NCBI GenBank assembly: GCA_013176395.1 | Contig: JABMLP010000001.1 | Location: 62,001 to 126,000, forward strand | From: Venturia oleaginea | Lineage: Eukaryota > Ascomycota > Dothideomycetes > Venturiales > Venturiaceae | Direction of reading: 5' to 3' | Length of the DNA stretch: 64,000 nucleotides | In this document: positions 14,166-15,377 of the stretch, piece by piece | How positions within the stretch are numbered: the stretch's first letter is position 1 | Layout: every line of letters begins with the position of its first letter | Notes under the pieces: generated by a model | The model's input: only the letters and a program-made list of their open reading frames with translations | The model's database searches: none | Told to the model about the DNA's origin: nothing | Position numbers and translations under genes: made by a program

Positions 14166-15377
14166 TCAAGCGCAACGGTCGATGTTGCCACGAAGCCTTC
14201 TTGCCAATTCCATATCTTTCTTTTGAATTGTAACGCGCTTGGCGTGAATAGCACACAAATTCGTATCTAGAATAGAGCGTTAATAGTGGTAAGGAGTAAA
14301 GAGGAATAATAATAGACCTTCGAAGAAACCAACTAGTAAGGACTCAGCAGCCTCATGGAGTGTTACGCAGAGGCTATGGCTCAAAGTAATATAGCTGGAT
14401 TTGGCTAATCCGTACAGTAGCGTTCAAGTGGTCCGGGGCGACAATATCGTATCAAACAAGTGAAGCGAAGCTTGCAAGTTATAGAGTCGTGAGTTGTGCT
14501 AAGTAACTAAAGCAATAGCGAAGTAACTAGAGAGTCAAGATACGAGACACTGAGGGAGCAGAGTCTCGTCCTATATATAGAGATCCATCTCCTAAGATAT
14601 TCTGCGCTCGTGGCGCTCGCAATCGAGCGTGTCGAGCGCTCGCCTTGCCAAGGCTCGAGCGTTCACATGACCCTTCCGATCCCATGTAACAACTTACTAA
14701 TCACAAAGGAAACGCGCCATACATGTCACTAAACGTTCCACGTGACAGTATCCGTAACATGGAGAGCCTCAAGTGCCTGCGCCCGGAAGCGCAAACCCTG
14801 TTTGATCTTCACGGTAATCTCGCGGATCAGACGATATATAGGTGCCTTTTTGATGAGGAGTTCGGTGCACTTCTGGTAGCGACGGGTCTCACGTAACGCG
14901 ACGGTTACATGCATGTTAGAGTATCGGGAAACTACCAGAACCATATAAATAATCGATAAACTTACTCCCTGGTTTGTAGCGATGTTTCTTTCTTACTGGC
15001 GCTTGAGGGTGATAGCCTGGAACTGTTTTCCGCGCCAAGGATGGGTTTTTACCGCCACGTATAGGAACAATGCCGCGTTTGCCTGTGGCTTTGGCTTTGG
15101 CTTTGGCTGTGGCTTTGGCTTTGGCTTTGGGGGTGTAGTTTCGGTCATTTGGGCCTTGGTTATCTGAGCCGGACTTGGTTGAGTCGGACCCATGGTCATT
15201 TCCACTACTAGGAGCAATGCTGCTATTGGCTGGTGGTGTGGCTGTAGGGACATTTTCAATACCAGCAGCTAGCCGGGTAGCTGCACGGAGTTCATCGTCG
15301 TGTCTTTTGTTGGTGGCTGAAGGCTAAAGTATATTAGCTTTATTATACGTGAGAGTATTAGGAAATGAACTTACCAT
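14166..15377 (-). pseudogene. histone H3 variant with lysine/alanine-rich N-tail, split by a solo LTR
   Basis: Exons as read: ATG 15377-15375; 15323-14966; 14904-14765; then, beyond the LTR (14361-14759), 14355-14318 and 14266-14166. The histone fold is clear: H-R-Y-K-P-G, T-V-A-L-R-E-T-R-R-Y-Q-K, then A-L-H-E-A-A-E-S-L-L-V, then E-D-T-N-L-C-A-I-H-A-K-R-V-T-I and A-R-R-L-R-G. The tail is about 110 residues, unlike canonical H3 (no ARTKQT start), with a repeated Lys-Ala stretch at 15072-15130. The second half of the fold is diverged (R-F-R-A-Q-A-L where H3 has R-F-Q-S-S-A). Loop 1 has H3 length, so a CENP-A identity is possible but not shown. The middle intron (14905-14965) has GTAAGT and CTAAC but ends TAA instead of TAG. 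A 5-bp target duplication flanks the LTR. Confidence 0.82.
14361..14759 (+). repeat. solo LTR, copy 1, inside the H3 variant gene
   Basis: 399 bp, starts TGTTACGCAGAGG and ends ATCCGTAACA. Flanked by the direct repeat TGGAG (14356-14360 and 14760-14764), as expected for LTR integration followed by LTR-LTR recombination. A second solo copy, about 95% or more alike by eye, is at 27483-27883. No internal region of this family is in the window, so it is not assigned to copia or gypsy. Orientation is arbitrary. Confidence 0.85.

What the first reader, a model, noticed from the sequence alone, without database searches (positions are those of the whole stretch)
14166..15377. Histone H3 variant with an H1-like Lys/Ala tail, lying in a transposon island and split by a solo LTR
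Seen: a complete H3 fold can be followed across three short introns and a 399-bp solo LTR with a 5-bp target duplication. The tail is about 110 residues, carries Lys-Ala repeats, and lacks the H3 start. Known: divergent tails mark centromeric H3 (CENP-A), but CENP-A usually has a longer loop 1 with a Trp, both absent here. Inference: a duplicated or specialised H3 variant, possibly centromere-related, inactivated by retrotransposition in this strain. Whether other isolates keep an uninterrupted copy is the key question.
Basis: partly seen in the sequence, partly recalled or inferred. Interest (0 to 1): 0.8.

Follow-up and report, generated by a model that had tools for sequence, protein, structure and literature searches.

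The report
Broken copy of odd fungal histone
This stretch of a transposon-rich fungal genome holds a broken copy of an unusual histone H3-like gene that exists in about six scattered copies, one of which still has an intact reading frame; transposon-linked H3-like copies are already known from a few other fungi.

Summary
On the minus strand, 15377-14166, four exons encode an H3-like protein. A 399-bp solo LTR (14361-14759, CTCCA duplicated) splits exon 3. One lesion was missed: intron 2 ends in AA where the three other copies that reach it have AG.

The locus is one of six dispersed copies in the held 46-Mb genome. The copy at C59:1401739-1402516 has no LTR and an intact 204-residue frame. All four copies that cover the LTR site are empty there. 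The genome also has an ordinary H3 and a separate CENP-A. The H3-like fold (68 of 94 positions identical to H3, 63 to CENP-A) has H3-length loop 1 and no Trp, so the centromere reading is not supported. The Lys-Ala run varies between copies.

New here: a head-to-head orphan gene (15773-17101, +) that recurs with, and in pieces without, the H3-like gene; and a 15-mer confined to this family.

Transposon-borne H3-like amplification is published for Pyrenophora tritici-repentis and for Pseudocercospora and relatives. No hAT domain was found within 10 kb of the six copies here. I rate this a new variant of a known kind. Species, expression and other isolates are untested.

The parts
15375..15377 (-). 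exon 1: start codon only; intron 1 is 15324-15374
   Evidence: sequence; same arrangement in C59
14966..15323 (-). exon 2: N-terminal tail with Lys-Ala repeat, ends at KPG
14905..14965 (-). intron 2; last two bases AA instead of AG
   Evidence: C1 matches bases 1-60 of the 61-base C59 intron
14760..14904 (-). exon 3, part before the LTR (includes CTCCA 14760-14764)
   Evidence: Pfam Histone 44.2 bits for 14765-14902
14361..14759 (-). solo LTR, 399 bp
   Evidence: repeat family
14318..14360 (-). exon 3, part after the LTR (includes second CTCCA 14356-14360); intron 3 is 14267-14317
14166..14266 (-). exon 4 with stop codon
   Evidence: Pfam Histone 35.6 bits for 14169-14264
15773..16011 (+). orphan neighbour gene, exon 1 (divergent from the H3-like gene, 395 bp between start codons)
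16070..16424 (+). orphan neighbour gene, exon 2
16538..17101 (+). orphan neighbour gene, exon 3 (acidic), assuming the intron 2 acceptor at 16537
13998..14012 (-). 15-mer GACTATCAGGAAACT in the 3' flank of the H3-like gene
14919..14933 (+). same 15-mer, 2 mismatches, antisense in intron 2 (exact in C59)
17164..17178 (+). same 15-mer in the 3' flank of the neighbour gene

Best explanation
The locus is a dead copy from a small dispersed family of H3-like genes. Shown: six copies, one with an intact frame (C59), the others cut by truncation, deletion, a small inverted-repeat insert or, in the window, an LTR plus a changed splice acceptor; a head-to-head orphan gene that recurs with the H3-like gene at other copies; constraint on the fold since its split from canonical H3. 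Inferred: the pair spread by transposon-linked or segmental duplication inside transposon islands and is now decaying; an intact product would pair with H4 and enter nucleosomes in place of H3, with a tail that does not offer the usual H3 tail residues (the position of Lys9 aligns to Pro, on a weak alignment). Unknown: whether C59 is expressed.
For: Six H3-like loci (11 of 19 Histone matches). Intact C59 coding sequence of 615 nt, 204 residues. Uninterrupted LTR site in 4 of 4 covering copies. Against canonical H3 dN 0.22, dS 1.10 (80 codons). Changes private to a copy in exons 3-4: C46/C18 7 nonsynonymous and 3 synonymous, C1 4 and 3 (one more nonsynonymous shared with C3), C15 1 and 4, C59 at most 1 and 1 (my count), so C59 is the least altered. 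Neighbour recurs next to the H3-like gene in C46, C18 and, in pieces, C59. Transposons on both sides.
Against: dN/dS between copies is only moderately low (C59-C46 0.58, C59-C1 0.43), so recent constraint is not shown. C59 itself has an insertion of about 1.3 kb some 115 bp upstream of its ATG and a repeat starting at its stop codon, so it may be silent. No RNA evidence. No duplicating element was identified. C46 and C18 are 99.2% identical over 7.75 kb and may be one place.
Confidence: 0.68

Rival explanations
1. Remnants of a hAT-type DNA transposon that captured an H3 gene (transduplication), as published for Pyrenophora tritici-repentis and Pseudocercospora, now too decayed to show its ends and transposase.
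For: Same kind of fungus genome context: several H3-like copies in transposon islands with an extra ORF of unknown function beside them (PMC3538342). Fragments of the pair are dispersed over many contigs.
Against: 70 hAT dimerisation-domain matches in the genome, none within 10 kb of the six loci; nearest is about 11 kb away on C3, and C15, C18 and C46 have none listed. No terminal repeats: the two outer flanks score above 0 of 1000 shuffles in C1, but C3 against C50 does not (68 of 1000 as good). Copies end at different places. Tail and neighbour found no database relatives, although I could not compare directly with the published H3L. A DUF659 search found nothing, but its controls also found nothing, so it says nothing.
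Confidence: 0.2
2. A CENP-A paralogue or centromere-related H3 that lost the loop-1 insertion.
For: Tail stretch RGGKxPSLxR shared with the own CENP-A (80 of 2000 shuffles as good); sub-threshold Pfam hits to CENP-S and CENP-T_C, which are histone-fold families (21.6 and 20.0 bits, cut-offs 28 and 28.1).
Against: H3-length loop 1, no Trp, 63 of 94 identical to CENP-A against 68 of 94 to H3; five-sequence tree places it with neither pair (supports 61 and 79); a true CENP-A is present.
Confidence: 0.06
3. Functionless debris: an old H3 duplicate that never had a role of its own and was multiplied by chance.
For: Five of six copies broken; moderate dN/dS between copies.
Against: dN/dS about 0.2 since the split from canonical H3, an intact C59 frame, own introns.
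Confidence: 0.06

Closest known systems
H3L genes carried in a hAT transposon of Pyrenophora tritici-repentis (Manning et al. 2013, PMC3538342; abstract, passages and section 20 part 1 seen)
   Same: Several H3-like genes in repeats; neither H3 nor CENP-A; altered tail; a neighbouring ORF of unknown function.
   Different: There: 26 near-identical copies inside an element with TIRs and hAT transposase, with ESTs. Here: six diverged, mostly broken copies, no hAT domain within 10 kb, no TIRs found. Direct sequence comparison was not possible; the tail search gave no hit.
H3 captured by a hAT element in Pseudocercospora fijiensis and relatives (Dhillon et al. 2019, PMC6710886; abstract, text part 1, results, discussion part 1 seen)
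   Same: Amplified H3-like sequences in repeats, nearly all broken.
   Different: There: 784 copies, intronless, RIP-mutated, original H3 is the intact one. Here: three introns, no strong excess of transitions (1.1 to 2.3 times transversions; the CpA context was not tested).
CENP-A (own copy at C15:637959; Cnp1)
   Same: H3 fold with non-standard tail; weak tail similarity.
   Different: No loop-1 insertion, no Trp, other intron positions.
Canonical H3 (own copy at C60:839345)
   Same: Fold without gaps, 68 of 94 identical.
   Different: Tail, introns, charge-altering substitutions in the fold.

Membership tests
Histone H3 fold | Scores as core histone and aligns to H3 | tested here: met
   Pfam Histone 130.8 bits for C59, 44.2 and 35.6 for two window pieces; best of 176 solved matches is H3.1
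Canonical H3 | ARTKQTARKS tail | tested here: not met
CENP-A | Longer loop 1 and Trp | tested here: not met
   alignment
CENP-A | Centromere localisation | not testable with these tools
   needs ChIP or imaging
hAT-borne H3L (transduplication) | hAT transposase in the same repeat unit | tested here: not met
   70 PF05699 matches, none within 10 kb of the six loci
hAT-borne H3L (transduplication) | Terminal inverted repeats and 8-bp target duplication | tested here: inconclusive
   none found; ends differ between copies
hAT-borne H3L (transduplication) | Sequence similarity to the published H3L | not tested
   the published sequence was not at hand; the tail search gave no hit
Solo LTR | TG...CA ends, short target duplication, other copies in the genome, no internal region | tested here: met
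Recent processed copy of H3 | No introns, near-identity to H3 | tested here: not met

The most novel reading that the evidence does not exclude
The pair is cargo that shields mobile DNA from silencing: the H3 variant enters nucleosomes but cannot carry Lys9 methylation, the acidic partner is its dedicated chaperone, and the 15-mer shared by both 3' flanks and, antisense, by intron 2 couples the two genes. Nothing measured here shows this. It only fits the Pro at the Lys9 position (weak alignment), the opposite charges of the two proteins, the head-to-head order and the family-restricted 15-mer.
Probability: 0.06. Interest if true: 0.88.

Novelty: new variant of a known kind. Interest (0 to 1): 0.42.

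Why it matters
Transposon-linked amplification of H3-like genes is described in the two papers seen here. A further case that keeps introns, has another tail and travels with another orphan gene would suggest that this recurs, and raises a testable question: does mobile DNA gain from carrying its own histone? The intact C59 copy makes expression and chromatin tests possible.

Tried and rejected
Centromere H3: not supported on loop 1, Trp and the presence of a true CENP-A, though the tail similarity is told above. Recent processed copy: rejected on introns and dS. The LTR as part of the neighbouring Gypsy-like element: rejected, that element is flanked by its own 176-bp direct repeats. RIP: transitions are 1.1 to 2.3 times transversions between C1 and five copies; CpA context not tested. 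Both 3' flanks as terminal inverted repeats: 0 of 1000 shuffles as good in C1, but 68 of 1000 for C3 against C50, so dropped. Introner-like intron: the C59 intron 2 has four matches in the genome, all in this family. Structure of the neighbour's exon 3: mean pLDDT 38.3, unusable; no fold search was made. Species: not identified. A 5.8S search found nothing; the core protein search scored 7981 candidates and showed 120, whose names I saw were animals and plants, so a fungal relative lower in the list would be missed; the tail (38 candidates) and the neighbour (5959 candidates) gave no hit at E 10. A DUF659 search was uninformative.

Full report
What is there. On the minus strand from 15377 to 14166 four exons can be followed: the start codon alone, a tail exon (15323-14966), exon 3 (14904-14318, with the insert) and exon 4 (14266-14166). 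Exon 3 is split by a 399-bp LTR (14361-14759) with CTCCA on both sides. Tested apart, the pre-LTR part of exon 3 and exon 4 score 44.2 and 35.6 bits as histone, cut-off 26.4. Intron 2 ends in AA; the three other copies that have it (C59, C46, C18) end in AG. So the window copy carries two lesions.

The family. A Pfam Histone search listed 19 matches, of which 11 are exons of six H3-like loci: C1, C59, C46, C18, C15, C3; DNA searches find the same loci plus a flank-only fragment on C61. C46 and C18 are 99.2% identical over 7.75 kb and may be one place. C59 encodes an intact 204-residue protein. C46/C18 lack about 660 bp, including the front of the tail, and carry an insert of about 170 bp with inverted ends at the end of the tail exon. 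C15 is cut inside exon 3, C3 keeps little more than exon 4. All four copies that cover the LTR site are uninterrupted there (C59, C46, C18, C15). C59 is not pristine: about 1.3 kb with 82-bp inverted ends is inserted some 115 bp upstream of its ATG, and a repeat starts at its stop codon.

What the protein is. The genome has a canonical H3 (C60:839345) and a CENP-A (C15:637959) whose best solved match is Cnp1. Over 94 aligned fold positions the H3-like protein is identical to H3 at 68 and to CENP-A at 63, while H3 and CENP-A agree at 74. It has H3-length loop 1 and no Trp. A five-sequence tree puts it with neither pair (supports 61 and 79). Against canonical H3, dN is 0.22 and dS 1.10 over 80 codons. 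Its three introns lie elsewhere than those read in the own H3 and CENP-A. The tail begins with about 70 unmatched residues. HMMER aligns the rest to the H3 tail with Pro at the Lys9 position, but that stretch alone is no better than shuffles (561 of 2000), and it is closer to the own CENP-A tail (80 of 2000). The Lys-Ala run is a tandem repeat of varying length.

Selection. Private changes in exons 3-4 are 7 nonsynonymous and 3 synonymous in C46/C18, 4 and 3 in C1 (one more nonsynonymous shared with C3), 1 and 4 in the shorter C15, and at most 1 and 1 in C59 (counted). dN/dS is 0.58 for C59-C46 and 0.43 for C59-C1. Constraint was real in the long run; recent constraint is not shown.

The neighbour. 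Divergently, 395 bp away, lies a three-exon gene (15773-17101, +) for 385 residues: basic in the first 80 (pI 10.3), acidic after (pI 4.1). A nearer acceptor in its intron 2 would end it early (sequence). It recurs beside the H3-like gene in C46/C18 and in pieces at C59; its last exon recurs without the H3-like gene on C5, C50, C57, C51 and C20. At C5 that exon keeps frame with a 12-bp deletion (dN 0.021, dS 0.042); C50, C57 and C51 are frameshifted, C20 was not counted. It has no Pfam match above cut-off and none of 5959 database candidates reached E 10.

A shared 15-mer. GACTATCAGGAAACT occurs five times in the genome, all in this family: 3' flank of the H3-like gene in C1, C3, C15, 3' flank of the neighbour in C1, and antisense in intron 2 of C59; the reversed control gave 0 and about 0.09 is expected by arithmetic. 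Similarity extends over 23-29 bases. Unexplained.

Surroundings. By Pfam the window has Copia-type (7611-12749), Tc5-type (12992-13705), and two further reverse-transcriptase regions (18113-19738 and 22714-26133) around the locus. The name DIRS for the 17.6-21.1 kb element is recalled and not from a call.

Comparison with print. Seven paper searches led to two precedents, read as stated under Closest known systems. In both, H3-like genes were multiplied inside hAT elements. Here no hAT dimerisation domain lies within 10 kb of the six loci (70 matches in the genome), introns are kept, and no element ends were established. It resembles those cases; membership in a hAT-borne family failed the transposase test and is open on the ends.

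Verdict. A real, twice-broken copy of an H3-like gene family with an orphan partner; a new variant of a known kind. The centromere idea is not supported. Species, expression and other isolates remain untested.

Noticed in passing
window 13998-14012, 14919-14933, 17164-17178: 15-mer GACTATCAGGAAACT found only in this gene family in the genome (5 exact matches); lies in both 3' flanks and antisense in intron 2.
   Followed up: partly
window 21869-22044 and 27271-27446: 176-bp direct repeats, 99.4% identical, flank the Gypsy-like element at 22714-27245, so that element looks young.
   Followed up: no
window 27483-27883: Second copy (96.5%) of the 399-bp LTR family, right beside that Gypsy-like element but not its own LTR.
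   Followed up: no
window 17653-21000: Element about 99% identical to a copy next to the truncated C15 H3-like gene.
   Followed up: no
L036 (C59) 1837-2389: Palindrome of about 553 bp inside the neighbour-gene remnant of the C59 copy.
   Followed up: no
window 17401-17631: High-copy repeat of about 230 bp, over 30 matches at 94-97% in the genome.
   Followed up: no
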